Shown in pieces: positions 47,591 to 62,593 of a stretch of 64,000 bases of DNA. The notes under the pieces are model-generated. The model did not search any database, had not been told where the DNA came from, and saw only the letters and a program-made list of their open reading frames with translations. The position numbers and the translations under genes are program-made. Source of the stretch: Rhodobacterales bacterium RIFCSPHIGHO2_02_FULL_62_130 (GTDB lineage: Bacteria > Pseudomonadota > Alphaproteobacteria > Rhodobacterales > Rhodobacteraceae); NCBI GenBank assembly GCA_001828855.1, contig MHZT01000044.1:1-64000 (forward strand). Reading direction: 5' to 3'. Each line of letters begins with the position of its first letter. The first letter of the stretch is position 1.

Positions 47591-47614
47591 CGATATGTTT
47601 CAAGAAACATTTCG
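47591..47614. promoter_or_regulatory. Mo-box-like dyad upstream of modA
   Basis: The inner arms ATGTTTC/GAAACAT (47595-47601 and 47604-47610) are perfect, and the outer CGA/TCG at 47591-47593 and 47612-47614 extend the dyad with one mismatched pair. The CGnTAT...AnnnCG layout resembles the Mo-box bound by ModE-type proteins. It is 14 bases upstream of the modA start, between modE and modA. Confidence 0.6.
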
Positions 47615-47628
47615 ATAAGGGTCAAGAT

Positions 47629-48402: not shown

Positions 48403-48409
48403 GGGGTTG

Positions 48410-49078
48410 ATGGACTGGGTTTCACTGTTGCTGTCGCTGCGTTTGGCAGGCTGGACCGTGGCGATCCTGCTGCCTGTCGCGGTCTTTGCGGGCCGCTTTC
48501 TGGCCTATCGCAGCTTTGCCGGCAAAGGGCTGGTCGAGGCGCTGGTGATGCTGCCTTTGGTGCTGCCACCCACGGTTCTGGGGTTTTACCTGCTGGTCAG
48601 CCTTGGCGCGCGATCCCCCATCGGGCAGGGCTGGCAGGCGCTGTTTGGTGGACCCTTGGTGTTCACCTTTCCGGGGCTGCTGATTGCTTCGGTGATTTTC
48701 AACCTGCCATTTGCGATCCAGCCCTCCCAACGCGGGTTTGAATCGATTCCGGTTGCGCTGCGCGAGGCGGCGGCCTGTTGTGGCATGTCTCCGCTGCGCG
48801 CATTGTGGCGAGTGGAGCTGCCTTTGGCCTGGCCGGGGCTGATGACGGCGATGGCGCTGACCTTTGCCCATACGCTGGGCGAGTTTGGCATCGTGCTGAT
48901 GGTGGGCGGATCGATTCCCGGCCAGACCAAGACCATCGCCATTTCGATCTATGACAAGGTGCAGGGCTTTGACATGACGGGGGCGGCGGTGATGTCCGCG
49001 ACCCTGCTGGCGATTTCTTTGGTTACGATCTGGCTGACCTTCTGGCTGTCGGCGCGGCTGGGCAGAAGGCTGTCCTGA
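48410..49078 (+). CDS. modB: Molybdate ABC transporter permease ModB
   Basis: 222 residues from ATG 48410, after GAGGGGTTG. Five to six membrane segments, with LVMLPLVLPPTVLGFYLLV, the EAA loop (LREAAACCGMSPLRALWRVE) and FAHTLGEFGIVLMVGGSIPG, all typical of ModB. It overlaps modC by one base (TGATG at 49076-49080). Confidence 0.94.
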   Translation: MDWVSLLLSLRLAGWTVAILLPVAVFAGRFLAYRSFAGKGLVEALVMLPLVLPPTVLGFYLLVSLGARSPIGQGWQALFGGPLVFTFPGLLIASVIFNLPFAIQPSQRGFESIPVALREAAACCGMSPLRALWRVELPLAWPGLMTAMALTFAHTLGEFGIVLMVGGSIPGQTKTIAISIYDKVQGFDMTGAAVMSATLLAISLVTIWLTFWLSARLGRRLS

Positions 49079-50175
49079 TGGCGCTTGAGGTGATGGCACA
49101 GGCCGAAGGGCCGATCCCGCTGAACGTGGCGTTCCGGGTGGAGCCGGGCGAGTTGGTGGCGCTGGTCGGTCCCTCCGGTTCCGGCAAATCAACGCTGCTG
49201 CGGACAATAGCGGGACTGTGGACACCGCAGGCGGCGCGGGTCACGGTGGGCGGGTCGGTCTGGCTGGACAGCGCAGCCGGGATCAACCTGCCACCGCATC
49301 AGCGTCATCTGGGGATGGTGTTCCAGTCCTACGCGCTGTTCCCGCATATGACGGCGGCGGCGAATGTGATGGCGGCGATGCCCGCCCGCCCCAAGGCAGA
49401 AAACAGGGCCGAGGCGCAGCGGCTTTTGGCGCTGGTCAATCTTGCCAGCTTGGGCGCGCGCTATCCGGCTGAACTGTCGGGCGGCCAACAACAGCGGGTC
49501 GCCGTGGCCCGTGCTTTGGCCCGCAACCCGCAAGTGCTGCTGCTGGACGAGCCGTTTTCCGCCGTGGATCGCGCCACGCGGGAAGGGCTTTATGCCGAGA
49601 TTTCTGCGCTGCGGGGCAGCCTGAACATGCCTGTGGTTCTGGTCACCCATGACATCGCTGAAGCGCAGCTTTTGGCGGATCGGATGGTGGTGATCGAGGC
49701 GGGGCAAATGCTGCGCGATGGCACCACCGCCGAAGTGATGTTTGACCCGACGGTGCTGCGCGCGATGGGTATTCGGGACGCCGGATCAGCGCTGCAAGCC
49801 CGCATCGCCGCACAGGAAGAGGATGGGCTGACGCGGCTGGAAACCGCTGCGGGGCCGATCTGGCTGCCGCGTGTTGATGGCGCGATAGGAACTGCGGTGC
49901 GGGTACGGATCATGGCGCATGAGGTGATCTTGTCGCGCAACCGCCCCGAAGGGCTGTCGGCGCTGAACATCCTGCCCGTCACAGTTCATGCGGTGATGCA
50001 GGGCGATGGTCCGGGTGTTCTGGTAGAGTGCCGCGCGGGCGACGCGCCGCTTCTGGTTCGCATCACCCGACGCTCGGCCATAGGGCTGGGGCTTGCGCCC
50101 GGCGTGAGCTGTTATGCGATCCTCAAATCCATGTCGGTGGCGCGGGATCAGGTTGGCTTGGCATCCGTGATATAG
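49078..50175 (+). CDS. modC: Molybdate ABC transporter ATPase ModC
   Basis: 365 residues. Walker A GPSGSGKSTLL, signature LSGGQQQRVAVARALA, Walker B LLLDEPFSAVD. The C-terminal ~70 residues form the Mop/TOBE domain (LPVTVHAVMQGDGPGVLVEC, then GVSCYAILKSMSVARDQ) that binds molybdate and inhibits transport when cells are replete. Last gene of the operon; a strong hairpin terminator follows 17 bases later. Confidence 0.95.
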   Translation: MALEVMAQAEGPIPLNVAFRVEPGELVALVGPSGSGKSTLLRTIAGLWTPQAARVTVGGSVWLDSAAGINLPPHQRHLGMVFQSYALFPHMTAAANVMAAMPARPKAENRAEAQRLLALVNLASLGARYPAELSGGQQQRVAVARALARNPQVLLLDEPFSAVDRATREGLYAEISALRGSLNMPVVLVTHDIAEAQLLADRMVVIEAGQMLRDGTTAEVMFDPTVLRAMGIRDAGSALQARIAAQEEDGLTRLETAAGPIWLPRVDGAIGTAVRVRIMAHEVILSRNRPEGLSALNILPVTVHAVMQGDGPGVLVECRAGDAPLLVRITRRSAIGLGLAPGVSCYAILKSMSVARDQVGLASVI

Positions 50176-50238: not shown

Positions 50239-51681
50239 TCAGCGCTGGTTCTGGCCCATGCGGGCAAAGGCTGCCGGATCGCCCGACCGCAACCGGCTGG
50301 CCATCATATAGCCAATGAGGCCACCCAGAGGGATCAGGCAGGGCAGCACGATGCCCAAGATTCCGCCTGTGGTGCCGGTCAGATCGCCAAAGTTCAGGAA
50401 GACATAAACGAACAGCACCACCATGATGGCGCCCGACAGGACCGGCAGGATCAGGCTTGCCAGTATGCCGACATTCGTTTGGGTCTTGCGGAAGAAGGCC
50501 ACCACCGAAAGTGCGGTGATCGACATCATCCCCAGCACACCCAGAACGCCGATCTGGCTGATCCATGTGAACATGTTCAGGATCGGGTCCAGCCCTGCCA
50601 GCGCAAAGACCGCGATAGCGATCACCGACATGATGGTTTGCACGACCGATCCGACATGCGGGCTTTGGTGTTCGGCATGGGTATTGCCAAAAGCAGAGGG
50701 CAGCAGCCGTTCACGACCGGCAACATAGCTGTAGCGGGCGATGTAGTTGTGGAAGGCACTCAGCGCCGCAAACAGGCTGGATACCAGCAACAGGCCCGCA
50801 ATCATGGCAACCGTGCCGCCGACATATTGCCCCGCCAGTTCAAAGAAATAGCTGGTCGGATCGGCCAGCCCGCCAACGGTTTCCTGCAACTTGTCCGTGC
50901 CGACGGCAACCACCATCAGCCATGTGGTGAACACGAAGAACAGCCCGATCATCAGGACCGAGATATAGGTCGCGCGCGGGATGGTCTTTTCGGGGTCGCG
51001 CGCCTCTTCGGCATAGATCGTGGTGGCCTCGAACCCGATGAACGAACCAAGGCAGAACAGGATCGACGCCGAAAGCGAACCGCTGGTGATGGCCTCATAG
51101 TTGAAGAAGTCAAAGGACAGGCCTTGCGGGCCGCCGTTGCCAAGGATGGCGAAATCGACGATCAGCACGATCAGGTATTCAAGACCCACCAGCAGGATCA
51201 TCACCTTGGCCGACAGATCGACCTGCCGATAGCCCAGCACGGCCACCAGCGCCGTGGCGATCAGGCTATAGGCCCACCACGGCAGGTTGATGCCCATTGA
51301 TCCGAACACCCCTGCCGACACGCCGCCCAGCAGGCCCAGCAGACCGAACTGCATGGCATTGTAAGAGAACAGCGCCATCATCGACACTGCACCGCCCATG
51401 CGCCCGCCCAAACCGCGCGCGGCATAGGCATAAAAGGCGCCCGCGTTGCTGACATGGCGCGACATGGCGACATAGCCGACCGAAAAGGCCAGCATCACGA
51501 GTGTCATAAAGAGGAATGTCGCAGGCATCCCCGCGCCGTTGCCGATCAGAAAGGCAATCGGCACCGCCCCCGCCACCCCTGTCAGCGGAGCCGCCGCCGA
51601 GACGACCATGAAGGTCACGGCAATCAGCCCCAGTGAATTCTTGCGGAGCTGGTTTGCCCCTTTGTCCGGTCTTTCTGTCAT
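50239..51681 (-). CDS. Amino acid/amine permease of the APC superfamily
   Basis: 480 residues, about 12 membrane segments. N-terminal consensus FMVVSAAAPLTGVAGAVPIA and the FIGFEATTIYAEEARDPEKT motif are typical of APC transporters of amino acids and polyamines. It is the last gene of the minus-strand run that starts at nicX, 84 bases after the flavin reductase gene. Its likely job is uptake of the substrate or export of an intermediate of that pathway; the substrate itself is not evident. Confidence 0.88.
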   Translation of the reverse strand: MTERPDKGANQLRKNSLGLIAVTFMVVSAAAPLTGVAGAVPIAFLIGNGAGMPATFLFMTLVMLAFSVGYVAMSRHVSNAGAFYAYAARGLGGRMGGAVSMMALFSYNAMQFGLLGLLGGVSAGVFGSMGINLPWWAYSLIATALVAVLGYRQVDLSAKVMILLVGLEYLIVLIVDFAILGNGGPQGLSFDFFNYEAITSGSLSASILFCLGSFIGFEATTIYAEEARDPEKTIPRATYISVLMIGLFFVFTTWLMVVAVGTDKLQETVGGLADPTSYFFELAGQYVGGTVAMIAGLLLVSSLFAALSAFHNYIARYSYVAGRERLLPSAFGNTHAEHQSPHVGSVVQTIMSVIAIAVFALAGLDPILNMFTWISQIGVLGVLGMMSITALSVVAFFRKTQTNVGILASLILPVLSGAIMVVLFVYVFLNFGDLTGTTGGILGIVLPCLIPLGGLIGYMMASRLRSGDPAAFARMGQNQR

Positions 51682-51765
51682 TTGCGTTCCCTGTTCACTG
51701 ATATGCGCCGGTCTTTGCCGGCTTTGGTTTTCCGCCCGTAACGGGTCGGATTTCGGGGATCTCCC

Positions 51766-52272
51766 CTAAAACTGCACCGCCCGCCGATAGGCGCGCTGGC
51801 CATAGAGCAAGGCGGCCGGTTGGTCCGACAGCCACACCGATGTCACTTTGCCCACGATGATGTAGTGGGTTTCCCACAGCAAGGCCGTTGCAAGGCGACA
51901 TTCGAAATTTGCGGTGGCCCCCGCCAGAACGGGCTGACCTTCTGGGCCGGCATGCCAGTCGGCCTGTTCGAACCGCGCGGGCGCATCCGCCTTGGCGCGG
52001 CCTGCGAATAGATCGGACAGCGCCTGCTGGTCTTCGTGCAAAAGGTTGGCACAAAAGGCGCGGTTCTTCAGGATCGCCGTGGCGGCTGGGCTAAGGTGAT
52101 GGATGCAGGCCAAAAGGGACGGCGCATCGCCATCCGCCGAGACGGATGTCAGCGATGAGATGGTCACCCCGAACCGCCCCGCCTCGCCATCGGTCGTTGC
52201 CACGGCCACAAAGGTGGCGGCGCGGCTCATGCCTTCCAGAAAGCGGTTTCGCAGGTCTTGCATGGCGGTCAT
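51766..52272 (-). CDS. Flavin reductase (HpaC/FRE-like) for a two-component monooxygenase
   Basis: 168 residues, with the flavin-reductase-domain pattern: MSRAATFVAVATTDGEAGRF, GVTISSLTSVSADGDAPSLL, then FCANLLHEDQQALSDLFAGR. Enzymes of this size reduce FMN or FAD with NAD(P)H and hand it to a partner oxygenase. The start overlaps the glutamine-synthetase-like gene by ATGA (52269-52272). The natural partner here would be the acyl-CoA dehydrogenase-fold flavoprotein four genes upstream, which resembles the fold used by several two-component monooxygenases. Confidence 0.88.
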   Translation of the reverse strand: MTAMQDLRNRFLEGMSRAATFVAVATTDGEAGRFGVTISSLTSVSADGDAPSLLACIHHLSPAATAILKNRAFCANLLHEDQQALSDLFAGRAKADAPARFEQADWHAGPEGQPVLAGATANFECRLATALLWETHYIIVGKVTSVWLSDQPAALLYGQRAYRRAVQF

Positions 52273-53609
52273 CCCAGATCGAAAAAGCGTTCCAGTTCCA
52301 CATCGGGAACCTTCTTGCGGAATTCGTTGTATTGGCTTTCACGGGTCGAGCTGAACGCCTCGACAAAGCGGGGGCCAAGCCAGTCTTTCGCAAAATCCGA
52401 TCCGCGCAGGCGGTCGATGGCCTCGGGCATGGAACGGGCGAAATCGCGCGGCGGAGTTTGGGAATAGCCGTTGCCAAGGGTTTCGTCATCCGGCTCGATC
52501 TGTTCGATAATGCCTGCGACCCCTGCGGCAATGGTCGCCGCGGCGGTCAGGTAGGGGTTCGTGTCCGCCCCCGGCAGCCGGTTTTCCACCCGCAAAGACC
52601 CCGCATCATGGCCAACAAGCCGGAAGCAGGTGGTGCGGTTTTCATAGCCCCACGTCAGACCGGGCGGCGCAAAGGTGCCGGGCGCAAAGCGGCGGTAGGA
52701 ATTGACTGTGGGCTGGCACAGCAGGGTCAGATCACCGATATAGCGCTGCAAGCCGCCCAGAAAATACCGGAAGGTCTGCGAGACGTTGTTCTTCTGCGAC
52801 GGGTCGAAGAACACCGATTTGCCCGCCTTGTCCTTCAAGGACACATGCACATGGATCGACTGGCTGTCAGCGTGTTCGGTCCAGCGCGGCATGAAGGTGA
52901 CGCATTTGCCTTGCCGCTGCGCCAGTGCGCGCAGGAAGTTCTTCAGCAGCACCAACTGGTCGGCAGGCTCCAGCCCCTCACCCGCCGCGATGCAGGCCTC
53001 AAGGAAACCGCCGCCGATTTCCTCGTGCATCTTGGCTAGATTGATTTTCAGCGGGATGCACATTTCGGCAACCGCCTCATACCATTCGGTTTGCTGCACC
53101 TGATACAGCACCAGATCGTGACTGTTGTGCTGCGTCGCGGTTTTCAGGTTGCGATAGCCCTTGGCGCGCGCGCTTTCGGGGGTTTCGTCGAACAAGGTAT
53201 ATTCCAGCTCCATCCCGTATTTCGGCACCAGCCCCGCCGCATCGGCCCGCGCCAGCACCCGTTTCAGGATGGAACGCGGGCAAAACTCGGAGGTAGCGCC
53301 GGAATAGTTCGACAGCACCAGCATGTCATACCCCGGTTTCGACCACGGCAGACGCCGCACCGTTGCAGGGTCCAGCAGCAAGGGATCGTCATGGAAATCG
53401 GAATCGCCATCCGACACGCCGGGGATCACCTGCACCACATCGGTCGGGTCAAGCGCCAGCGTCACGGGGGCCATGCCCATGCCGTTGCGGGCAATGCCTT
53501 TCAGGCTGCCGGTGGACACCATCTGCCCGCGCAAAAGCCCGTTGGTATCGGTCATCGCCACGGTGGCAAAACGGGCGGCCGGATCGGCGATATAGTCGTC
53601 AAGGGTCAT
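52269..53609 (-). CDS. Glutamine-synthetase-like ligase (gamma-glutamylamide type)
   Basis: 446 residues. GS-fold motifs: YGMELEYTLFDETPES (metal-binding Glu), IHVHVSLKDKAGKSVF, the ATP-site region RFAPGTFAPPGLTWGYENRT and ENRLPGADTNPYLTAAATIA. In place of the classic NPI loop of GlnA there is a divergent N-terminus (TNGLLRGQMVSTGSL), as in PuuA-like and aniline-type gamma-glutamylamide synthetases, so the acceptor is more likely an organic amine than ammonia. Overlaps TetR (53606-53609) and the flavin reductase. Its presence suggests that the pathway substrate or an intermediate is an amine. Confidence 0.86.
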   Translation of the reverse strand: MTLDDYIADPAARFATVAMTDTNGLLRGQMVSTGSLKGIARNGMGMAPVTLALDPTDVVQVIPGVSDGDSDFHDDPLLLDPATVRRLPWSKPGYDMLVLSNYSGATSEFCPRSILKRVLARADAAGLVPKYGMELEYTLFDETPESARAKGYRNLKTATQHNSHDLVLYQVQQTEWYEAVAEMCIPLKINLAKMHEEIGGGFLEACIAAGEGLEPADQLVLLKNFLRALAQRQGKCVTFMPRWTEHADSQSIHVHVSLKDKAGKSVFFDPSQKNNVSQTFRYFLGGLQRYIGDLTLLCQPTVNSYRRFAPGTFAPPGLTWGYENRTTCFRLVGHDAGSLRVENRLPGADTNPYLTAAATIAAGVAGIIEQIEPDDETLGNGYSQTPPRDFARSMPEAIDRLRGSDFAKDWLGPRFVEAFSSTRESQYNEFRKKVPDVELERFFDLG

Positions 53610-54289
53610 GGTTCACCTGTTGGCATGGGATGGGCGCTTAGAAGCGTCTCTAATGTGGCAAGGTCTGTGGCGGGATCGGTCGCATAGGCTTTCAAGAAAA
53701 CCCGCAGACCGTTGTTAATATAGCGGGCCAGAACGTCCTGCCCGAGATCGAGATCAGGCTGATACAGCGCCTGCGTTCTGGGGGCCGACAGGATCAGGCC
53801 CCAGAGATCCTGCGCGGCCAGTTCGGCATCATCAAAGGCCAGCCGCCCTGCGCTGCGCTGTTGGTCAAGATAGGCCATAATGCCCTTCAGCAACCGGTCC
53901 GGTCCCGAAGTCTGATAGGCCCGACCGATTTCGGGAAAGCGCTGCACCTCGCCGATGATCAGGCGGGCCAGTGACAGCAGATCTGGCCGCATCACGGTGC
54001 GCGCGTAATCCCATGCGAAGGCATGCAGATCGTGAACCATGCCATCAGCCGAGGGGTGTTCGAAAACGTCCAGCATCTGATCGCGCTTTTGCAGCATCAT
54101 CGCCGAGAAAAGTTGATCCTTCGACTCGAAGTATTGGTAAAGCGTCGGCTTTGTCAGGCCCGCCGCTGCGGCAAGCCCGTCCATCGTGGCACCGGAATAG
54201 CCGGTTTCGGAAAACACCTTTAGCGCCGCGTCGAGAATCCGCCGCTCTTTCGCAATCCGGTTTTGCTGGCGGCGGGGCAGACCGGTCAT
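53606..54289 (-). CDS. TetR/AcrR-family regulator inside the nicX operon
   Basis: 227 residues. N-terminal helix-turn-helix: LDAALKVFSETGYSGATMDG, then AAAAGLTKPTLYQYFESKDQ. The C-terminal ligand domain has the AcrR-like pattern LARLIIGEVQRFPEIG. It overlaps both neighbours by four bases (54286-54289 with the hydrolase, 53606-53609 with the ligase), so it is translated with the enzymes and probably acts as local feedback repressor. Confidence 0.9.
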   Translation of the reverse strand: MTGLPRRQQNRIAKERRILDAALKVFSETGYSGATMDGLAAAAGLTKPTLYQYFESKDQLFSAMMLQKRDQMLDVFEHPSADGMVHDLHAFAWDYARTVMRPDLLSLARLIIGEVQRFPEIGRAYQTSGPDRLLKGIMAYLDQQRSAGRLAFDDAELAAQDLWGLILSAPRTQALYQPDLDLGQDVLARYINNGLRVFLKAYATDPATDLATLETLLSAHPMPTGEP

Positions 54290-55572
54290 TGTGGTAACCT
54301 GCGAAGGAAGTCGATCAGAGTGCGGCTGTAGGCTTCGGGCTGTTCGACGTTGCAGACGTGGCCTGCATCCGCGATCACCTCGAAGCGCACGTCGGGCTGC
54401 GGGGCGCTGTCCCAGATCCGGCCCGCCACGCTGCGGATTTCGGCGGGTGGCGCAAGGCGGTCATGCTGGCCTGTCATCATCAGAACCGGCATGGTCAGGC
54501 GGGCAAAATCGAACCGCTCCAGCGGGTTGGTAAAGCAGACCAAGGCATCGCGGTAGGTGCTGGCGGAAATGGCCGCCATTGATGCCAATAAAGCCTGTCG
54601 CGTGGCCTCGGTTGCATTCGGCCCTGCCAGAACCTTGACAACGGCGGGCGCGAAATCGGCCGGAACCTGCCCTGCGTTCAAGGGAACCTCGCGGCTGACA
54701 CGGAAAGCCTCGCGTTCATCCGGTCCTGCCTCGGACATGCCGGTACAACCACCCGACAGCACCAGACCGGCCAGCATTTCAGGGTGCCGCATGGCAAAGG
54801 ATGTGGCGATCCAAGACCCGTAAGACAGCCCGCACAGCACCAGCTTGCGCGCGCCCAGCACATCGCGGAGGCGCAGAATATCCTCGCAATAGTCATCCAC
54901 TGTAGACTGACGCGCGCCCAAGGAACTGCCGCCATAGCCCCGCAGATCCAGCGCCGCCGCCCGCATCACCGACCCGACTGCGCCCAGTTGCTGCGCCCAA
55001 TTGCTGCGGCCGCCGCCGATACCGTGCAGGAACAGGCACAGCGTGTCTTGCCCCAGATCGGGCGTCACCGACAGGGCAAGCCGTGGCAGATCGTCGATGG
55101 TCAGCGATTTAAGGGCAACCGGCACAGGCATGTCTTGCGCCGGAGCGGCCTGAACGACAGCTTTGCCAAGCGCAGCAATGCCATCATTGAAAATACTTTT
55201 CGTTCCATTGCAGACCTGCGCCACCCGCGTAGCAGGGCCGTGGACAGTCGCTGTCCAAGTAATCGCGCTGCCCCCGTCTTCCGCCGGTGAAACCGTCATG
55301 CGGGCATTGTAGGACTCGATCCCCGCGATGCCCTGCAGATGGCGGTAGGCCAGCGTGCGGTCGCTGTCGCTGAAATAGGTCAGTTGCTCGCGGTAAAGCG
55401 TGTCCTCGCCGTGGGTGGTAAAGGCGCGGATCAGCGCGCCTTGCGGGCCATGCTCGGCCTTTGCTGTGGCAATGGCGGGATGCCACGTGCCGCAGAAATC
55501 CCGCGCCACCGACCAGACCGCTTCGGGACTGGCCGGCAGGATGCCGTGACAATGGACCTGATCGCGCGCCAT
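54286..55572 (-). CDS. SRPBCC domain fused to alpha/beta hydrolase
   Basis: 428 residues with two parts. Residues ~1-140 form an SRPBCC (START-like ligand-binding) domain: LPASPEAVWSVARDFCGTWH and GIESYNARMTVSPAEDGGSA. Residues ~155-428 are an alpha/beta hydrolase with nucleophile Ser250 (CGLSYGSWIA), acid Asp371 (GQHDRLAPP) and His405 (DAGHVCNVEQP). In nicotinate degradation the step after NicX is hydrolysis of N-formylmaleamate by the alpha/beta hydrolase NicD; this protein is well placed for a similar step. The SRPBCC fusion is not part of NicD as I know it and may bind the ring-opened product. Confidence 0.85.
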   Translation of the reverse strand: MARDQVHCHGILPASPEAVWSVARDFCGTWHPAIATAKAEHGPQGALIRAFTTHGEDTLYREQLTYFSDSDRTLAYRHLQGIAGIESYNARMTVSPAEDGGSAITWTATVHGPATRVAQVCNGTKSIFNDGIAALGKAVVQAAPAQDMPVPVALKSLTIDDLPRLALSVTPDLGQDTLCLFLHGIGGGRSNWAQQLGAVGSVMRAAALDLRGYGGSSLGARQSTVDDYCEDILRLRDVLGARKLVLCGLSYGSWIATSFAMRHPEMLAGLVLSGGCTGMSEAGPDEREAFRVSREVPLNAGQVPADFAPAVVKVLAGPNATEATRQALLASMAAISASTYRDALVCFTNPLERFDFARLTMPVLMMTGQHDRLAPPAEIRSVAGRIWDSAPQPDVRFEVIADAGHVCNVEQPEAYSRTLIDFLRRLPQ

Positions 55573-55575
55573 AGC

Positions 55576-56886
55576 CTAGCGCAGCCCCTTCAAGGAACCG
55601 GCATCGCCGCGCCACAAGGACGACCGGCCTGCGCCTTCGTCACCGGGGGCTGTGTCGATCTCGTCCATTTCATAAAGCGCCAGAACGCCCAGATAATCCT
55701 CCATGATTTCAGAGGTATAGGGCAACATCAGTGCGCCGCAGCGGCTGTCGCGATACATCCGCTCCAGCGGCAGGGATTTAAGCATCGACTGCCCGCCACA
55801 GGTTCGGATCGCAAGCGCGGCCAGTTCCTGCGCGCCCTCCATCACGTTATACTGCGCGGCATACATCCGCATCACCTCGGCCTTGGTCGGGAAGCCTTTC
55901 GCCTCGGAGAACGCCTGCCACCACAGCGCGCGGATGTTGGCAAGACGCGTATACATCTTGCCCACGGTGATCCGCTTGGTCGCATACATGCGGCGGTCGA
56001 TCGGGGGTTGGCCGGGGATCTGGCCCTTGAGGTAATCAACGGTGAAGTCATAAGCCCCTTGCGCGACCCCCATATAGGTGGGCGACAGGGTGGCCATCAT
56101 ATGCGGGTAGTTCGGCAGGGTTTTGCCAAAAATGCCGCGCGGCATCAGCATGTCTTCTTCGGTGACAAAGACGTCCTTAAGGATCAGATCGCGCGAGTTG
56201 GTGCCGCGCATCCCCAGCGGGTCCCAGTCGCCCTTGACAGTCAGGCCCGCCGCGTCTTTGTGAACCACAAACAGCACGGTGTCCTCGTGGCGGGGCTCGA
56301 CGCCTTCGAACACCTCTGTGCAAACGATGGTGTAGTAATCGCAATAGCCCGCAAGGCTGGCGAATTTCTTGAAGCCGCTGATCTTCCAGCCGCCCTCAAC
56401 CTTGCGGCATTGGGTCTGGTTTGGCTTTGACGTCCAGTTCTGACCACCTTCGGAAATCGGCTGCGAATAGATCGCGCGCTCGGCAATGGCGCGGCGGAAC
56501 TGGCGTTCGCGCAGCGGGGCAAAGGCAGCGCGCTCGGCATCGGTCAGGTTCGGCATTTCGAACATGAAGCGCGACCATGCCATCGACGAATTGTGCATGT
56601 TGAAGGTCAGCGCGGTCGCGCCGCAGTATTTGGCAATCTCGGCCCCGACCATGGCATATTCGAACATGGAAAAGCCCAAGCCGCCAAATTCGACAGGGAT
56701 GCACAGGCCAAGAAAGCCCTCGTCCGCCAGATCGCGGTAGTTTTCGACGGGGAAAGACGCATCAATGTCGATCTGGGCCGAGCGTGGGGCAAAGCGTTCG
56801 CGGCCCAATTCGTTCACGCGGCGCAGCTTTTCCACCACTTCGGGGCGGATGCGGGACAGGTCGTAATAGTCGGCGATATCGCTCAT
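55576..56886 (-). CDS. Acyl-CoA dehydrogenase-fold flavoprotein, possibly a monooxygenase component
   Basis: 436 residues of the acyl-CoA dehydrogenase superfamily: LADEGFLGLCIPVEFGGLGF, AIYSQPISEGGQNW, WKISGFKKFASLAGYCDYYT and a C-terminal IRTCGGQSMLKSLPLERMYR. The catalytic Glu of true dehydrogenases was not confidently located. The same fold serves two-component flavin hydroxylases (for example HsaA type), and a flavin reductase lies in the operon, so oxygenation of a ring or N-heterocycle is a real alternative to acyl-CoA oxidation. Located 21 bases after nicX and 3 bases before the hydrolase gene. Confidence 0.85.
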   Translation of the reverse strand: MSDIADYYDLSRIRPEVVEKLRRVNELGRERFAPRSAQIDIDASFPVENYRDLADEGFLGLCIPVEFGGLGFSMFEYAMVGAEIAKYCGATALTFNMHNSSMAWSRFMFEMPNLTDAERAAFAPLRERQFRRAIAERAIYSQPISEGGQNWTSKPNQTQCRKVEGGWKISGFKKFASLAGYCDYYTIVCTEVFEGVEPRHEDTVLFVVHKDAAGLTVKGDWDPLGMRGTNSRDLILKDVFVTEEDMLMPRGIFGKTLPNYPHMMATLSPTYMGVAQGAYDFTVDYLKGQIPGQPPIDRRMYATKRITVGKMYTRLANIRALWWQAFSEAKGFPTKAEVMRMYAAQYNVMEGAQELAALAIRTCGGQSMLKSLPLERMYRDSRCGALMLPYTSEIMEDYLGVLALYEMDEIDTAPGDEGAGRSSLWRGDAGSLKGLR

Positions 56887-56907
56887 GTCAGTCTCCCTGC
56901 GGGCGCG

Positions 56908-57960
56908 TTACAGCGCCAGATCTCCTTGAAGGACGCCGTTTTGCACGACGACCTGACCATCCAGTGCGATGGTGCAATTCCGCATCGGCAGGTCGAAATG
57001 ACCCAGCGTGTAGCGGCCGGCATATTGGTTGGCGCCCGTGGACCACAGGAAGGAACCTGCCAAGGCGCGGAACTCGACCGCCTGCATGTCGCGCTTGTCA
57101 TACATCGCGGCGCTGACCCATTTGGCACCGGGGTTCATGCCCCAGCCGACGTGGCTTAGGCCAAAGGCGTTGCGGTCTTCCCATGCGTCCATGTATTCGC
57201 GCAGGTGCAGCGCATCAATGCCGTCGCCTTTGATGGAGGTCACGAAATCGTCCTGAATGGTGAAATCGATCTGGCTGGTCAGAGTGGTCTTGAACGTCAG
57301 GTTCATATCGCCCACGCCCATCACGATCCGCCCGTTGACTGCATTCTTGCCGGGGAATGCAAGGCACAGCCCGCCCGGCCAATGCGCCACAGATCCCGGC
57401 GTGGTGCCGAAACCTGCTGTTCCGCCACAAGGCGCGCCGCGCAGATCAATAGTCAGATCGGTGCCAAGCGCCGAAGTGACCCGCATTTCAGACGCCTCGC
57501 GCAGCATCTGGATGCCAAGCTGCACTTTCGGGCCGTGTTCAGCCTTGGGTTCGGTGCGTTCCAGAATCTCGGGGTGTTCATTGGTGATGACCAGAAGGCG
57601 GGCGCGGCCTGCCTCTTCGATTTCGGGCCATTCGGGGGCGTGGATCAGCCCTTCGACGGTGCAATCGACCACAACGTCAACCAGCTTCAGTGCCTCGATC
57701 ACCGCGCGGTTTTGTTGGATCGCCCATGAGGTGCCGGTGGATTTCACCGGAACCGGCGCGGTTTGCGGCGGGGTCGGCATCTGGATCATGCAGAACTCGG
57801 CCCCCAGATCATACAGCGCCAGCTCCGACAGATGCACCAGAACCGGACGCGACTGGGTTTCCGAGATCAGCGCCACTTGCGTTCCTTTGCCGATGCCGTT
57901 CAGCGCGAACACCCGCCGGAACGCCGCCAGCCATTTGCCCTCGATCCGTTCCTGCAGCAT
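56908..57960 (-). CDS. nicX: 2,5-dihydroxypyridine 5,6-dioxygenase-like protein (NicX family)
   Basis: 350 residues, matching the length of Pseudomonas putida NicX, the ring-cleaving Fe(II) dioxygenase of nicotinate degradation. The C-terminal half is clearly related: GLSHVGWGMNPGAKW, SFLWSTGANQYAG and HFDLPMRNCTIALDG. The iron ligands known for NicX (two His and one Asp) correspond to His270, His321 and Asp323. The N-terminal half is much less conserved, so substrate may differ from 2,5-dihydroxypyridine. The ATG at 57960 follows GGAGGAAGCG. It heads a run of seven minus-strand genes, and 90 bases upstream lies a 20-base palindrome shared with the gentisate/GntR locus. NicC, NicF and NicE homologues were not seen in the window. 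Confidence 0.85.
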   Translation of the reverse strand: MLQERIEGKWLAAFRRVFALNGIGKGTQVALISETQSRPVLVHLSELALYDLGAEFCMIQMPTPPQTAPVPVKSTGTSWAIQQNRAVIEALKLVDVVVDCTVEGLIHAPEWPEIEEAGRARLLVITNEHPEILERTEPKAEHGPKVQLGIQMLREASEMRVTSALGTDLTIDLRGAPCGGTAGFGTTPGSVAHWPGGLCLAFPGKNAVNGRIVMGVGDMNLTFKTTLTSQIDFTIQDDFVTSIKGDGIDALHLREYMDAWEDRNAFGLSHVGWGMNPGAKWVSAAMYDKRDMQAVEFRALAGSFLWSTGANQYAGRYTLGHFDLPMRNCTIALDGQVVVQNGVLQGDLAL

Positions 57961-58083: not shown

Positions 58084-58716
58084 CTAGAGGGTATCGGCCT
58101 GCAGCTTCGCCCATGTCGGGCGATCAAGGCTGAAGGTGTCATGTGTGCGGATGTAATCGCTGCCAAAAGACCGCGCGACCAGATCCAGCGCATCGGTCAA
58201 CACATGGCCACGCGCCGCATCCTTTACAAAGCGGTCGTCGATATGAACGGCCAGAACGCGGCCAATGACGACGGTTTGCTGTGGCCCTGTCACCACCGAT
58301 GACAGCGACACACATTCAAACGCCACAGGGCTTTCGGCAATGCGGGGCGGAGCGATATGGGTGGAAGGCAGGGTTTCCAAGCCCGCCAGCGCCAACTCAT
58401 CTACCCCGCGCGGGGCGTCAACGGCGGTCAGGTTCATCGCGGCCACCAGCCGTTCCGGCACCAGATTAATGACGAACTCACCCGTGTCCAGAATGTTGCG
58501 GGCAGTGTCCTTGAAGCCCCGTTCAGGATCGGCCAGCAGGCCAAGCGCGATGGTGGGCGGGGCCGATCCCATCACATTGAAAAAGCTGTAGGGCGCGGCG
58601 TTGACCTGCCCTTGTTGGTCCTTGGTCACCACCCAAGCAATCGGGCGCGGCACCACTGTGGCGGCCAGAAGCTTGTAGGCGATGGCGGTGCCTACCTTGT
58701 CCAGATCAAAGCGCAT
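58084..58716 (-). CDS. Flavin reductase-domain protein of the nitrilase operon
   Basis: 210 residues with the FMN-binding split-barrel pattern of the DIM6/NTAB flavin reductase group: LLAATVVPRPIAWVVTKDQQ, GQVNAAPYSFFNVMGSAPPT, then ARNILDTGEFVINLVPERLV. It would bind FMN and may supply reduced flavin to an oxygenase, or act on its own as an oxidoreductase. The start overlaps the nitrilase stop by one base (TGATG at 58714-58718). It is the last gene of operon B. Confidence 0.86.
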   Translation of the reverse strand: MRFDLDKVGTAIAYKLLAATVVPRPIAWVVTKDQQGQVNAAPYSFFNVMGSAPPTIALGLLADPERGFKDTARNILDTGEFVINLVPERLVAAMNLTAVDAPRGVDELALAGLETLPSTHIAPPRIAESPVAFECVSLSSVVTGPQQTVVIGRVLAVHIDDRFVKDAARGHVLTDALDLVARSFGSDYIRTHDTFSLDRPTWAKLQADTL

Positions 58717-59639
58717 CAGACCTCGCGCACGGCTGTTTTCGGTTTGGTATCCACGGCAAGCTGGAACACATCGGGCCGCCCGTAATGGCCTGTCACATCG
58801 AAATCGAACTTGGCGCGCATCACCTCATCAGGGTCTATGCTGGCATAAAGGATGGTCTCGCCGCTGAAATCAGGGCCAGCCAATACGCGGCCCAAAGGCC
58901 CGATGATCGCTGATCCGCCGCGCATCATCACGGTGTCAGGATCGTTCCCCAGCGCGCTTTCATGCTCTGCGCCATAGGCCGCGCGGGTGATGTGCTGGCA
59001 GGCGGTCAGAACGAAACAGCGGCCCTCCAGCGCGATATGCTGCATGGTGGCAAGCCATGTATCACGGTCATCTGCGGTCGGCGCGCAGTAAAGCGTAACG
59101 CCTTGGTGATACATATGCATCCGCAGCGCGGGCATATAGTTTTCCCAGCAGATCACCGCGCCGATGGTGCCAAAGTCGGTCTGGAACACCGGCATGGTAG
59201 AGCCATCTCCAAAGCCCCAGATCAGGCGTTCGCCCGCCGTGGGCATGAGCTTGCGATGCTTGCCGACCAGCCCCTTGGCGCCGTCAAAGTAAAGCACAGT
59301 GCAATACAGGGTAGCGCCATCACGTTCGATCACGCCCACCACAGCGAAAGCGCCGGTTTCGGCGGTCGCCTCGGCCAGAAGCGCAACCTCTGGCCCGTCC
59401 AGATCAATGGCCGCAGCGTGGTAGCGGGCAAAGGCGGCGCGGCCTTCGGGTTTGCGCATCCCGATGGGCGCGCCAAAGCTGGCACCCTTGGGATAGCCGC
59501 CGATCAACGCCTCGGGGAATACCACCAGCCGCGCGCCACTGGCGGCGGCCTGCCGCATAGAGGCGGCAGCCTTTTGCGCGGTGGCCAGCGGATCATCGGG
59601 AAGTGCCGCGATCTGGGCAACGGCAACGATGTAAGTCAT
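58716..59639 (-). CDS. Nitrilase (carbon-nitrogen hydrolase superfamily)
   Basis: 307 residues from ATG 59639; a 16-codon extension upstream runs into the hairpin region and is unlikely. The catalytic triad is visible: Glu43 (VVFPEALIGG), Lys130 (KHRKLMPT) and Cys164 (VICWENYMP). The CWEN sequence after the Cys is that of true nitrilases, which convert nitriles to acids plus ammonia, rather than of amidases. The substrate is unknown; a cyano-substituted aromatic or pyridine feeding the neighbouring ring-cleavage enzymes is an attractive idea but not shown. It sits downstream of the FAA-type hydrolase gene, after a pair of hairpins. Confidence 0.9.
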   Translation of the reverse strand: MTYIVAVAQIAALPDDPLATAQKAAASMRQAAASGARLVVFPEALIGGYPKGASFGAPIGMRKPEGRAAFARYHAAAIDLDGPEVALLAEATAETGAFAVVGVIERDGATLYCTVLYFDGAKGLVGKHRKLMPTAGERLIWGFGDGSTMPVFQTDFGTIGAVICWENYMPALRMHMYHQGVTLYCAPTADDRDTWLATMQHIALEGRCFVLTACQHITRAAYGAEHESALGNDPDTVMMRGGSAIIGPLGRVLAGPDFSGETILYASIDPDEVMRAKFDFDVTGHYGRPDVFQLAVDTKPKTAVREV

Positions 59640-59665
59640 GCAGGCGGTCCTTTCGTGGCGAAGGC

Positions 59666-59740
59666 AGGGGGCCAGCCCCCTGACCACATTGGCAAGCCAA
59701 TGTGGCTTACCCCCGGAGTATTTGGGCCAAGATGAATTCA
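59666..59740. repeat. Double hairpin plus intergenic repeat motif, copy 3
   Basis: Hairpin 1: AGGGGGC/GCCCCCT (59666-59672, 59675-59681). Hairpin 2: perfect 10-base stem CCACATTGGC/GCCAATGTGG (59684-59693, 59696-59705). Next comes CGGAGTATTTGGGCCAAGAT (59714-59733), the same motif as the repeat arms at 27590-27670. On the minus strand the motif begins right at the stop of the FAA-hydrolase gene, so it marks its 3' end and could tune nitrilase expression. Confidence 0.75.
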
Positions 59741-60658
59741 GTCCGGAGTCGCATTGACGACAGGATGACGGATTGTGCCGATGCCTTCAACGCTGGCGAC
59801 AACGACATCGCCCGGCCACATCCATTCCTGCGGGGTGCGTCCCGCGCCCACGCCTTCGGGGGTGCCAGAGGCGATGATGTCACCCGGTTCCAGCGTGATG
59901 CCAGACGAGATGTCGGAGATCAGCGTATCTACCTTGAACAGCATGTGCCGCGTGTTTGATCGCTGCTTTTCGACGCCGTTCACCGTCAGCCAAAGGTCCA
60001 GCACTTGGGGGTCGGGGATTTCGTCGGCGGTGACGATGCAGGGACCAAAGGGCGCATAGGTGTCTTGGCCCTTGGAAAAGATCCACTGACCCGCGCGGCG
60101 GTTGTCACGGGCCGATACGTCGATCATCACGGAATAGCCGAACACATGCGCCAGCGCGGTTTCGCGGGTGACGCGGCGGGCGGTGGTGCCGATGATCACG
60201 GCCAGTTCCACCTCCCAATCAAGCTGTTGGGTGATCTTGGCGTTATGCTCGATCCCCTGCCCCGGCCCGATCACGGTTGTTGGCGGTTTCGAGAAGATCA
60301 CCGGCTGTTTCGGCAGGTCTTTCGAAGTGTCCAGCGACGCCGCACTTTCGGCGACGTGTTCGACATAGTTCAACCCGATGCCGAAGATATTCTTGCGCGG
60401 ACGCGGGATCGGGGCCAGCAAGGTCACATTCGCCAAAGCCGTTGCAGAACCGGGCGCGAAATCACCGTCGGCCTCATCCAGACAGGCGCGCAGCAGGGCA
60501 AGGCCGGGGCGGCCCGCGTCGATCAGGCCCAGCATGGTGTCGGGCAACACCTCGCCCATGCTGTCGGCCAAGGCGGCGACATCGACAACCAGATCATCCA
60601 GCAGCACGCCAAGACGGGCGGCACCCTCGACATGGGCGCGGTAGGTCACAAGTTTCAT
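59738..60658 (-). CDS. Fumarylacetoacetate hydrolase-family enzyme (probable fumarylpyruvate/maleylpyruvate hydrolase)
   Basis: 306 residues. The C-terminal FAH domain is clear: IFGIGLNYVEHVAES, PVIFSKPPTTVIGPGQGIEH, then DWEVELAVIIGTTARRV with the metal-binding Glu residues, and ITLEPGDIIASGTPEGVGAG. Such enzymes hydrolyse acylpyruvates formed by ring cleavage. Next to a gentisate dioxygenase-like gene (9-base gap), hydrolysis of maleyl- or fumarylpyruvate is the most likely role; no maleylpyruvate isomerase is present, which would favour direct maleylpyruvate hydrolysis if the substrate is gentisate. Confidence 0.9.
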   Translation of the reverse strand: MKLVTYRAHVEGAARLGVLLDDLVVDVAALADSMGEVLPDTMLGLIDAGRPGLALLRACLDEADGDFAPGSATALANVTLLAPIPRPRKNIFGIGLNYVEHVAESAASLDTSKDLPKQPVIFSKPPTTVIGPGQGIEHNAKITQQLDWEVELAVIIGTTARRVTRETALAHVFGYSVMIDVSARDNRRAGQWIFSKGQDTYAPFGPCIVTADEIPDPQVLDLWLTVNGVEKQRSNTRHMLFKVDTLISDISSGITLEPGDIIASGTPEGVGAGRTPQEWMWPGDVVVASVEGIGTIRHPVVNATPD

Positions 60659-60667
60659 CGGATTTCC

Positions 60668-61789
60668 TCACAAGATCGGCTGATAGCCGCCGTTTTCACC
60701 AAAGGCCTGTTCGCGATACAGGCCCAGCGCCCGCATCACGGGCGTATCTGACAGACAGAACAGGCAGGCATCTTCGCCCGCCTGATCGTTGACATGTTCA
60801 TGCCAAGCCCATGACGGCACACAGAAGATATCGCGTTCCTGCCAGTCGAACCGCTTGCCGTTGATGATGGAATGGCCCTTGCCCTTGGCGACATGGTAAA
60901 GATAGCTGCCGGTATGGCGATGCGCCTTGGTGTGTTCGCCTGCGCGCAGCATCTGCATGCTGGCCCCCAGCGTCTGCATCACCGGACCGTTCGTCACCGG
61001 GTTCACATATTCCATCATCACCCCGTCATAGGGCGAACCATCGGTGCAACCGGCGTATTTGCTTAGCGCGTCATAGGTGGGCAGCCATTCATATTTGAAC
61101 ATCGGGCTGTAGCCTTTGGACCACGCCCCGCCCGAAGGCGTCAGCCCTGCGTTGCCCCATGTCTTGGTCATATCATCCACCGCATAGCCCACGGCCTGCG
61201 ATAGGTCGGGGTGGACCTCGTAGAAATTGGCCTCCATCGCGTTGACGAAGGGGATGTCCAGACCGTCCTGCCACAGGCAGGTCGTGCCTTCGGCGGCCAC
61301 GCCATGTTCGTGCCATGTGCCGTTGGGCGTCAGCACAAAATCATTCGCGCCAAGTGTCATCTTGTGGCCATCCACCACCGTGTAGGCGCCGCTGCCTTCC
61401 ATGATGAAACGGATCGCGCTTGCGGAATGACGGTGGGCGCTGGCCACCTCGCCGGGCTTCATCACTTGCAGGCCTGCATAGATCCAGCCGACCGCAGCCG
61501 CCACATCGCTGCGGCCCGGATTGTTCAGATAGATCACCCGCCGCCCCGCCTTTTCCGGCGTCACCAGATCAATCGAGCGCAACACATGGTCGCGCAATTC
61601 GCGATAGCGCCAGACCACCGGCACCGACTGGCTTTTCGGCTCCCACGGTTCGATCTTGTTGGCCACGGTCCAAAGCGCGCCAGCACTTAGCTTGTCGAGA
61701 TCGTTGTAATAGGCCAGCAGTTCGGGCGTATCTTCAACATTGGCGCGGCCTGCGACATCCTCGCGGTGGTTCTCATGGGGTTTTGCCAT
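60668..61789 (-). CDS. Gentisate 1,2-dioxygenase-like bicupin
   Basis: 373 residues, two cupin domains. N-terminal cupin (~95-175) with AHRHSASAIRFIMEGSG and LTPNGTWHEHG supplies the Fe(II) His ligands; C-terminal cupin (~265-350) has AHRHTGSYLYHVAKGKGH and VPSWAWHEH. Length and spacing fit gentisate 1,2-dioxygenase, which opens 2,5-dihydroxybenzoate to maleylpyruvate; relatives cleave salicylate or 1-hydroxy-2-naphthoate. The start follows AAGGAGGAT. First gene of operon B, divergent from the GntR regulator with a palindromic operator between them. Confidence 0.9.
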   Translation of the reverse strand: MAKPHENHREDVAGRANVEDTPELLAYYNDLDKLSAGALWTVANKIEPWEPKSQSVPVVWRYRELRDHVLRSIDLVTPEKAGRRVIYLNNPGRSDVAAAVGWIYAGLQVMKPGEVASAHRHSASAIRFIMEGSGAYTVVDGHKMTLGANDFVLTPNGTWHEHGVAAEGTTCLWQDGLDIPFVNAMEANFYEVHPDLSQAVGYAVDDMTKTWGNAGLTPSGGAWSKGYSPMFKYEWLPTYDALSKYAGCTDGSPYDGVMMEYVNPVTNGPVMQTLGASMQMLRAGEHTKAHRHTGSYLYHVAKGKGHSIINGKRFDWQERDIFCVPSWAWHEHVNDQAGEDACLFCLSDTPVMRALGLYREQAFGENGGYQPIL

Positions 61790-61830
61790 TGCAACATCCT
61801 CCTTGGTTCGCGCCTAGGATGCCGAGGTTC

Positions 61831-61865
61831 TTTTTCGCAAGCAAGCATGATTTTCGAAAATCTTG
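61831..61865. promoter_or_regulatory. Composite palindromic operator between the gentisate dioxygenase and GntR genes
   Basis: GATTTTCGAAAATC (61849-61862) is a perfect palindrome, and the wider stretch 61846-61865 keeps CA...TG ends with one mismatch. TTTTTCGCAAG lies 4 bases before it at 61831-61841. The same two boxes in the same order and orientation (read toward the target gene) occur before nicX. It lies ~60 bases upstream of the dioxygenase start and ~57 bases upstream of the regulator. Confidence 0.75.
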
Positions 61866-61921
61866 GAATTGCCAAGCAATCTGAGGAAAGCCATACTGGG
61901 CAAGACAATGAAAGCACGAGC

Positions 61922-62593
61922 ATGACCCTTGCGGAAAAAGCCTATGAGTCCTTGCGCCACGACATCATCCGTGGTGCGTTTCAGGCTGAACAGCCTTTGC
62001 GTCTGGCCGATCTGAAAACCCGCTATGACATGGGGTTTTCGCCGCTGCGCGAGGCGCTGAACCGGCTTCAGGCCGAACGGCTGGTGGTGGCCGAGGCCTT
62101 GCGCGGCTTTAAGGTGGCGGGGCTTTCGGTGGCGGAATTGCAGGATGCCACCCGCACACGCATCATGATCGAATCGCAGGCGCTGCAAATGGCGATTGCG
62201 CGCGGCGATGATGCCTGGGGCGCAAAGATTGTCGGCGCGCTTTATGCCCTGAAGGCGCAGGCGGCGCGAAGCGGGGCTGACAAGGACGTGTGGGAGCTTG
62301 AAGCCCGCCACCACGCCTTTCACCGCGCGTTGTTGGAGGCCTGCGGGTCTGACTGGCTGCTGGAGTTTTTCGAACGCCTTTACGCCGCGACCGAGCGGTA
62401 TCGGATTCCGATTTTGATTGAGTCGGACGTGCCGACGGGGCGCGATATTCAGGCCGAACACACAGCCTTGGCCGAGGCGGCAATCGGACGAAATGCGGAC
62501 TTGGCGGTGGACCTGCTGCGCGATCATTACACCCGCACGGCGGATACCATTCTTGGCCTGATGGATGCGCCCAAGCCAAAGCGGCGGAAGTAA
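61922..62593 (+). CDS. GntR-family (FCD) regulator, probable controller of both catabolic operons
   Basis: 223 residues from ATG 61922. An in-frame ATG at 61847 is rejected because it would place the palindromic operator inside the gene. N-terminal GntR winged helix: LAEKAYESLRHDIIRGAFQA, then DMGFSPLREALNRLQAERLV. C-terminal FCD ligand domain (~80-215) with RTRIMIESQALQMAIARGDD, ARHHAFHRALLEACGSDWLL and AEHTALAEAAIGRNADLAVD, including the His/Asp residues that bind metal in this subfamily. FCD regulators usually sense carboxylic acids. Its position beside the operator suggests autoregulation and control of operons A and B. Confidence 0.91.
   Translation: MTLAEKAYESLRHDIIRGAFQAEQPLRLADLKTRYDMGFSPLREALNRLQAERLVVAEALRGFKVAGLSVAELQDATRTRIMIESQALQMAIARGDDAWGAKIVGALYALKAQAARSGADKDVWELEARHHAFHRALLEACGSDWLLEFFERLYAATERYRIPILIESDVPTGRDIQAEHTALAEAAIGRNADLAVDLLRDHYTRTADTILGLMDAPKPKRRK

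What the first reader, a model, noticed from the sequence alone, without database searches (positions are those of the whole stretch)
50239..57960. Seven-gene nicX-type operon with a combination of enzymes I cannot match to a known pathway
The minus-strand run nicX-like dioxygenase, acyl-CoA dehydrogenase-fold flavoprotein, SRPBCC-hydrolase fusion, TetR, glutamine-synthetase-like ligase, flavin reductase, APC permease is almost gap-free: gaps of 21, 3, -4, -4, -4 and 84 bases. NicX ligands (His270, His321, Asp323) are kept, but NicC, NicF and NicE partners are absent. A gamma-glutamyl ligase plus a two-component flavin oxygenase plus a ring-cleaving Fe dioxygenase suggests degradation of an amine-bearing or N-heterocyclic ring by a route different from nicotinate. 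Known: NicX/NicD chemistry, gamma-glutamylanilide-type ligases. Inferred: that these act in one pathway.
Basis: partly seen in the sequence, partly recalled or inferred. Interest (0 to 1): 0.72.

Follow-up and report, generated by a model that had tools for sequence, protein, structure and literature searches.

The report
NicX-like ring-opening operon, likely indole-type
A widespread but unassigned bacterial gene cluster appears to break open a nitrogen-containing ring with an enzyme built like the known pyridine-opening enzyme NicX but with a changed substrate pocket, probably feeding the breakdown of anthranilate.

Summary
The set is conserved: ACAD and hydrolase accompany the NicX-like gene in 60 of 60 named loci with enough flank, all seven in 36 of 60.

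The dioxygenase is a NicX homologue. It keeps the Fe ligands but not Glu177, which grips 2,5-dihydroxypyridine: E or Q in 11 of 11 canonical rows, T in 94 of 94 core rows. It falls in a separate supported clade.

The context points to anthranilate rather than maleamate. CoA-ligase, ABMR-type or kynurenine genes lie nearby in several lineages. In a phylum sample 19 of 19 strong-hit genomes carry ABMR-type genes, against 51 of 379 others. But 7 of 16 in the family sample lack them.

Best reading: a two-component monooxygenase, NicX-fold dioxygenase and deformylase turn an indole-type ring into anthranilate. The substrate is unproven. My search listings showed no description of this set.

The parts
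56908..57960 (-). NicX-fold non-heme Fe(II) ring-cleaving dioxygenase (core gene, NICX)
   Evidence: 7cn3 NicX E 7e-51; Fe ligands H270/S307/H321/D323 and H107, H193, R298 kept, Glu177-equivalent changed; core clade 100/100 in the tree
55576..56886 (-). acyl-CoA-dehydrogenase-fold flavoprotein, probably the oxygenase half of a two-component monooxygenase (core gene, ACAD)
   Evidence: PF02771/02770/00441; best solved chain 5gj7 E 6e-38, with nitrososynthase and DnmZ among further hits; a proline where dehydrogenases have the catalytic Glu of Y-E-G-T (motif recalled) in all 13 rows of A3
54286..55572 (-). SRPBCC + alpha/beta-hydrolase fusion, probable N-deformylase (core gene, SRPH)
   Evidence: PF10604 + PF00561; GLSYG elbow; in the same gene run as NICX in 60 of 60 named loci; in frame with the TetR in 17 of 87 loci tested
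53606..54289 (-). TetR/AefR-like repressor
   Evidence: PF00440, PF14246
52269..53609 (-). glutamine-synthetase-like ligase (GSL), probable gamma-glutamyl ligase for an amine
   Evidence: PF00120 E 4e-82; below the cut-offs of all 4 NCBIfam models it hit; best solved chain 11zs E 2e-60
51766..52272 (-). flavin reductase FR2 (RutF/HpaC-like), likely partner of ACAD
   Evidence: PF01613 E 3e-32; RutF 111 and HpaC 90 bits, below cut-offs
50239..51681 (-). APC-family permease
   Evidence: PF13520 E 2e-23
60668..61789 (-). gentisate-1,2-dioxygenase-like double cupin (cupGDO), proposed 5-hydroxyanthranilate dioxygenase
   Evidence: 3bu7 E 7e-168; TIGR02272 306 bits, under its 442 cut-off
59738..60658 (-). 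FAH-family hydrolase
   Evidence: PF01557 E 5e-69
58716..59687 (-). nitrilase-superfamily C-N hydrolase (NIT); real start probably an inner ATG, judging from orthologues
   Evidence: PF00795; plant NIT4 6i00 E 2.5e-105; motif CWENYM
58084..58716 (-). flavin-reductase-like protein FR1
   Evidence: PF01613 E 1e-24
61766..62593 (+). divergent GntR regulator beside the upstream half (start uncertain)
   Evidence: PRK11534 CsiR-like 158 bits, under cut-off 218; GNTR hit in 27 and cupGDO in 26 of 60 named loci

Best explanation
The core NICX-ACAD-SRPH opens the N-ring of a benzo-fused N-heterocycle and delivers anthranilate (or a ring-substituted anthranilate). Proposed steps: (1) ACAD with reduced flavin from FR2 oxygenates an indole-type ring to an indoxyl (3-hydroxyindole); inferred. 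(2) The NicX-fold dioxygenase cleaves the C(OH)-C(H) bond next to the ring N, the same bond type that NicX cuts in 2,5-dihydroxypyridine (C5-C6), giving N-formylanthranilate; inferred by analogy, with the Fe site shown by sequence. (3) The SRPBCC-hydrolase removes formate, as NicD does; inferred. (4) Anthranilate goes on by CoA ligase + ABMR-type monooxygenase/reductase (present on another contig of this genome). In the window type its 5-hydroxylated form goes through cupGDO; ring cleavage beside the amino-bearing carbon would give an amide, then FAH releases pyruvate + a maleamate-like acid and NIT removes ammonia; inferred. GS-like ligase and permease are a lineage-specific module that handles an amine-bearing precursor; inferred.
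For: NicX homology with all four Fe ligands kept, but Glu177 (H-bonds N1 and O1 of DHP; passages of PMC7910607) replaced in 94 of 94 core and 18 of 18 intermediate rows and E or Q in 11 of 11 canonical rows; Glu308 likewise (a few contigs occur twice in these rows). Separate clade, 100/99. CAL (benzoate-CoA-ligase family) lies within the fetched 10 kb flank in 10 of 60 named loci: Rhodobacter, Gemmobacter, Tabrizicola, an unclassified Rhodobacteraceae, Shinella, Mesorhizobium, Ascidiaceihabitans. In G104 the only CAL copy at E 1e-150 lies beside NICX, while its ABMR cluster shows none. An ABMR-type gene (PRK08255, 1272 bits > cut-off 1078 for the L126 copy) lies in L126, L127 and L166-L169, and 4.4 kb from NICX in G530 and G532. 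Phylum sample: full-length ABMR-type gene in 19 of 19 genomes with NICX hits of 450 bits or more (my cut) versus 51 of 379 others, p 5e-16; by genus 12 of 12 versus 33 of 201, p 2e-9; versus genomes with weaker, canonical-range hits 8 of 15, p 0.001. kynB, kynU and kynA, all over cut-off, lie divergently beside NICX-hydrolase-ACAD-CoA ligase in L173; TDO follows CAL in L029 (over cut-off), L110 and L112. cupGDO-FAH-NIT-FR1 stands in one run with CAL, thioesterase and ABMR in G135 (L188), and by NICX in 26 of 60 named loci (cupGDO). [quoted passage not shown]
Against: In the family sample 7 of 16 genomes with NICX at 40% identity or more (G145, G123, G056, G143, G133, G136, G146) have no full-length ABMR, no CAL and no cupGDO at the cut-offs used, and none of them has anthranilate 1,2-dioxygenase over its cut-off, so anthranilate would be a dead end there. 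In that sample the ABMR association is weak (9 of 16 versus 45 of 133, p 0.10). Versatile genomes often carry ABMR anyway (8 of 15 with canonical-range NicX hits). Two of the 19 phylum genomes (G432, G190) show NICX without ACAD nearby (L170, L171). His105 of NicX is F in 9 of 11 canonical rows, so this pocket varies for other reasons too. No gene in the window is indole-specific. GS-like ligase and APC permease have no clear role with indole. Tct transporters, and ORFs that read by eye like TRAP and Pot-type importers, near the unit elsewhere suggest a charged substrate. Mo-hydroxylase genes adjoin L047, which fits pyridines as well. NIT has the CWEN motif of nitrile-hydrolysing enzymes (recalled), and the C-N hydrolases of the Caballeronia, R. 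pomeroyi and Sagittula clusters are only 33-35% identical to it. Structure prediction could not be run.
Confidence: 0.4

Rival explanations
1. The core degrades a substituted hydroxypyridine, for example an N-methylated one; ring opening and deformylation release methylamine or another amine, which GS-like or Mgs-like enzymes capture.
For: NicX fold and Fe site; MgsABC-like genes (class-II amidotransferase, FwdC-like and glutamate-synthase-type proteins) adjoin in 4 of 80 named loci (L104, L111, L119, L132) and in L037; Mo-hydroxylase beside L047.
Against: Glu177, which binds the lactam N and O of dihydroxypyridine, is lost in all 112 core and intermediate rows; Asp/Glu-racemase and isochorismatase genes, present beside canonical NicX in the two annotated examples, are absent from the operon; anthranilate genes lie nearby instead; the GS-like ligase scores lower to glutamate-methylamine ligase than to 11zs (121 versus 208 bits).
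Confidence: 0.25
2. Two neighbouring but separate pathways: cupGDO-FAH-NIT-FR1 finishes 5-hydroxyanthranilate or gentisate, while the NICX operon degrades an unrelated amine-bearing ring; linkage reflects catabolic islands moving together.
For: The halves occur apart: cupGDO-FAH-NIT-FR1 alone in G034 (L190), cupGDO-FAH-FR without NIT in S. alexandrii (L180), the NICX half alone in Ensifer (L028); 123 bases separate the halves in the window. In the family sample cupGDO occurs in 6 of 133 genomes without a NICX hit of 40% or more.
Against: cupGDO lies by NICX in 26 of 60 named loci across Rhodobacterales and Rhizobiales, and in opposite orientation in L113 and L130; NICX is also linked to CoA-branch anthranilate genes.
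Confidence: 0.2
3. One reading: the GS-like ligase glutamylates the aromatic amine itself, as in aniline catabolism, before oxygenation and ring cleavage.
For: GS-like + amidotransferase + oxygenase is the aniline scheme (passages of PMC4539516); GSL adjoins an amidotransferase in L040, L126, L127, and a 55% GSL relative, amidotransferase and P450 lie by an ABMR-type cluster without NICX in Sagittula stellata.
Against: GSL is missing (at 50% identity) from 9 of 60 full-flank named loci and from all 18 intermediate loci that keep NICX; the window operon has no amidotransferase and no Rieske oxygenase.
Confidence: 0.12

Closest known systems
NicX, 2,5-dihydroxypyridine 5,6-dioxygenase (P. putida KT2440)
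   Same: fold by homology; Fe ligands H265/S302/H318/D320, H105, H189, R293; an alpha/beta hydrolase in the same gene run
   Different: Glu177 and Glu308 replaced, separate clade, no racemase or isochorismatase partners in the operon
2-aminobenzoyl-CoA (ABMR) pathway of anthranilate
   Same: its genes are in this genome and near NICX orthologues in several lineages
   Different: not in the window itself; would act after, not within, the proposed core
iif/ind indole clusters; older indoxyl to N-formylanthranilate proposals
   Same: indole to anthranilate; two-component flavin oxygenase
   Different: the Providencia relative of iif uses a styrene-monooxygenase-type enzyme with an SDR and an arylformamidase-like protein (passages of PMC9871250); no NicX-fold enzyme is named in the passages seen; no sequence comparison made here
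Aniline gamma-glutamylanilide system
   Same: GS-like ligase plus oxygenase
   Different: no amidotransferase or Rieske oxygenase in the window operon
Gentisate / 5-aminosalicylate 1,2-dioxygenase modules
   Same: cupin dioxygenase + FAH hydrolase
   Different: below both NCBIfam cut-offs; a C-N hydrolase in the run

Membership tests
NicX (2,5-DHP dioxygenase) | Fe(II) ligands His265, Ser302, His318, Asp320 | tested here: met
   kept in 94 of 94 core and 18 of 18 intermediate rows
NicX (2,5-DHP dioxygenase) | Glu177 that H-bonds N1 and O1 of DHP | tested here: not met
   T in 94 of 94 core, V/I/N in 18 of 18 intermediate; E or Q in 11 of 11 canonical (role)
NicX (2,5-DHP dioxygenase) | same clade as KT2440 NicX | tested here: not met
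   core + intermediate split from canonical 100/99 in a tree of 44 chosen rows; the program warns of long branches, L051 above all
NicX (2,5-DHP dioxygenase) | turnover of 2,5-dihydroxypyridine | not testable with these tools
   needs assay
M29 aminopeptidase | sequence match to M29 chains | tested here: not met
   only NicX plus two unrelated weak hits listed up to E 1; no tree with M29 rows was made
Two-component flavin monooxygenase (ACAD fold) | ACAD domains with a flavin reductase nearby | tested here: met
   FR2 in 48 of 60 named loci
Two-component flavin monooxygenase (ACAD fold) | oxygenase activity instead of dehydrogenase activity | tested here: inconclusive
   dehydrogenase Glu motif absent in 13 of 13 rows of A3; motif recalled, no assay
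Gentisate 1,2-dioxygenase | TIGR02272 cut-off 442 bits | tested here: not met
   306 bits
Gamma-glutamylanilide-type system | GS-like ligase with class-I amidotransferase and oxygenase | tested here: not met
   no amidotransferase in the window operon; present only in some relatives
2-aminobenzoyl-CoA pathway | ABMR-type and CoA ligase genes in the same genome | tested here: met
   G000 contig C6
2-aminobenzoyl-CoA pathway | present wherever the NICX clade is present | tested here: not met
   19 of 19 in the phylum sample but 9 of 16 in the family sample

The most novel reading that the evidence does not exclude
The NICX clade is a NicX-fold indoxyl (3-hydroxyindole) 2,3-dioxygenase family, giving bacteria a monooxygenase / NicX-type dioxygenase / deformylase route from indoles to anthranilate, with cupGDO-FAH-NIT encoding the unassigned 5-hydroxyanthranilate branch.
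Probability: 0.27. Interest if true: 0.75.

Novelty: new variant of a known kind. Interest (0 to 1): 0.55.

Why it matters
NicX had not been reported to act on anything but 2,5-dihydroxypyridine (PMC7910607, passage). It would also offer genes for points that a 2018 indole review calls open: indole degradation outside iif, and the gene for the gentisate-type branch of anthranilate (PMC6221969, passage). A first test is cheap: indigo colour from ACAD + FR2.

Tried and rejected
Homarine and trigonelline operons were considered because MgsABC-like genes adjoin some loci; the homarine paper is not held and is known to me only from a citing passage and reference, so that comparison is open. Methylamine capture by GSL: not favoured, since glutamate-methylamine ligase is not the best match of GSL or of the two other GS-like proteins tried. 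Idea that cupGDO and CAL modules exclude each other: both 2, cupGDO only 24, CAL only 8, neither 26 of 60, p 0.16, so not shown. Known indole oxygenase sequences (IacA, IifC) were not at hand for comparison; of the weaker plasmid hits to ACAD I opened three (46%, 31%, 28%) and saw no indole cluster. No paper naming 5gj7 or 5z8t was found. A first neighbourhood map lost NICX in many loci through over-long ORFs; it was replaced by the tblastn map. My gene calls in other genomes are home-made codon-scored ORFs, and several neighbours were named by eye only.
Full report
OBSERVATION. All seven genes and their gaps (21, 3, -4, -4, -4, 84) are as described, and families agree. The NicX-like protein hits no Pfam model at E 1e-3, but aligns to solved NicX over residues 13-342 at E 7e-51; only two weak unrelated chains follow up to E 1. 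The cluster does not begin there. A gentisate-dioxygenase-like cupin, an FAH hydrolase, a nitrilase and a second flavin-reductase-like protein run on the same strand just upstream (58084-61789), with a divergent GntR; 123 bases separate the halves.

CONSERVATION. In the family sample 24 of 149 genomes hit NICX and 16 do so at 40% identity or more. Among the 60 with enough flank, partners were: ACAD 60, hydrolase 60, TetR 59, GSL 51, FR2 48, APC 38, all seven 36, cupGDO 26, FAH 25, NIT 14, FR1 25, CAL 10, ABMR 2. These loci are close relatives, so counts are not independent events; L055, L122 and L124 appear to be the same contigs as family loci L033, L036 and L040 (contig lengths). Ensifer adhaerens carries the seven without the upstream half; Aminobacter aminovorans carries both halves, with a gene annotated as LysR-type where FR2 stands.

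WHAT VARIES. GSL-FR2-APC is one of several alternatives beside the constant core. Others: GSL-FR2-amidotransferase with Tct genes (L040, L126, L127), another GS-like ligase + P450 + amidotransferase (L038, L058, L065, L090, L123, L125, L129, L131), MgsABC-like genes (L037, L104, L111, L119, L132, with an amidotransferase except in L111, whose locus shows none), an amine oxidase with hydantoinase-type subunits (L036), a DAO-type set (L041), and, in a more distant group, a CoA ligase (12 of 18 loci). In L123 the P450 module lies with homoprotocatechuate genes (HpaD 411 bits, over cut-off; the rest by eye). The hydrolase and the TetR share one open frame in 17 of 87 loci tested (L036/L122 and L040/L124 are the same contigs).

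THE DIOXYGENASE. NicX holds Fe with His265, Ser302, His318 and Asp320, and binds DHP through Glu177 (N1, O1), His189 and His105 (passages of PMC7910607). In 123 aligned rows (122 loci and the window) the Fe ligands are kept in the core (94) and intermediate (18) sets, and in the 11 canonical rows except one at Ser302. Glu177 is E/Q in 11 of 11 canonical rows, T in 94 of 94 core and V/I/N in 18 of 18 intermediate rows; Glu308 changes likewise; His105 and His189 stay in the core, while His105 is F in 9 of 11 canonical rows. A tree of 44 chosen rows separates core + intermediate from canonical with 100/99 support, with a long-branch warning. So the chemistry is probably NicX-like and the substrate probably is not 2,5-dihydroxypyridine.

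THE PRODUCT. In two annotated examples canonical NicX sits with isochorismatase-like and Asp/Glu-racemase genes, the maleamate and maleate steps by established knowledge. The core sits with anthranilate genes. CAL (benzoate-CoA-ligase family, 361 bits, just under the 375 cut-off) lies downstream of the permease in several genera. kynB, kynU and kynA lie divergently beside the core in L173, and TDO follows CAL in L029, L110 and L112. In the phylum sample all 19 genomes with a NICX hit of 450 bits or more have a full-length ABMR-type gene against 51 of 379 others; genomes with weaker hits (E up to 1e-60) have it in 8 of 15. This genome has CAL, RidA, thioesterase, ACAD, hydratase and ABMR relatives on contig C6. 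Against it, 7 of 16 family genomes with NICX have no full-length ABMR, no CAL and no cupGDO at the cut-offs used, and none of those 7 has anthranilate dioxygenase over the cut-off.

THE UPSTREAM HALF. In the family sample cupGDO occurs in 4 of the 16 NICX genomes and 6 of the other 133. In G135 cupGDO-FAH-NIT-FR1 continues straight from CAL, thioesterase and ABMR. In Caballeronia a cupin 74% identical follows a salicylyl-CoA 5-hydroxylase-type gene and precedes FAH, a C-N hydrolase and an Asp/Glu racemase; in R. pomeroyi a 62% relative stands with a C-N hydrolase, FAH and racemase. I infer a 5-hydroxyanthranilate branch: cleavage between the carboxyl-bearing and amino-bearing carbons gives an amide, which would explain a C-N hydrolase and a maleate-isomerase-like gene. 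The window's NIT is only 33-35% identical to those C-N hydrolases, so this point is weak. An anthranilate-gentisate branch via 5-hydroxyanthranilate is on record for Nocardia opaca (PMC4539516, passage), and its gene was called unreported (PMC6221969, passage).

MECHANISM. The analogy that ties these together is mine: NicX cuts C(OH)-C(H) next to N and leaves an N-formyl acid; the same cut in indoxyl leaves N-formylanthranilate, and a NicD-like hydrolase would give anthranilate. ACAD-like indigo-forming oxygenases exist (PMC6221969). The substrate is not shown; a pyridine substrate is the main rival.

LITERATURE. None of the listings of my ten text searches showed a description of this gene set; several searches asked about other points, and long results were listed only in part. 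I read passages of PMC13390433, PMC6221969, PMC9871250, PMC4539516 and PMC7910607, and saw other papers only as listings.

Noticed in passing
L036, L038, L040, L126 and 13 other loci: SRPBCC domain, alpha/beta hydrolase and TetR share one open frame, about 650-690 aa in most (in L133 it runs on into GSL, 1139 aa); L040's was scanned and holds all three. In the window the parts are two ORFs overlapping by 4 bases. An enzyme fused to its likely repressor.
   Followed up: partly
window 47203-50175 (+): SBP, permease and TOBE-type ABC ATPase that read like molybdate uptake, after a small ORF without a Pfam hit that reads by eye like ModE, convergent with the operon; a similar small ORF + SBP lie just upstream of NICX in Tabrizicola TH137 (L115).
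   Followed up: partly
window 42566-46542 (+): FAD/aminomethyltransferase demethylase-like protein followed by an MttB-family methyltransferase (PF06253 E 3e-175); an ORF that reads by eye like MttB is also near L036's NICX.
   Followed up: no
L123:368-9935: amidotransferase, P450 and GS-like ligase beside homoprotocatechuate genes, suggesting a gamma-glutamylated arylethylamine route.
   Followed up: no
L184 (Sagittula stellata plasmid): GSL relative (55%), amidotransferase and P450 beside an ABMR-type cluster, without NICX in the stretch.
   Followed up: partly
L185 (Dolichospermum plasmid): an ACAD relative (46%) on a plasmid typed as conjugative, with none of the other genes annotated in the 17 kb stretch.
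   Followed up: no
L183 (R. pomeroyi megaplasmid) and L186 (Sagittula): C-N hydrolase, cupin and FAH genes (and a racemase next in L183) divergent from indolepyruvate oxidoreductase and thioesterase genes, possibly an isatin or aryl-glyoxylate route.
   Followed up: partly
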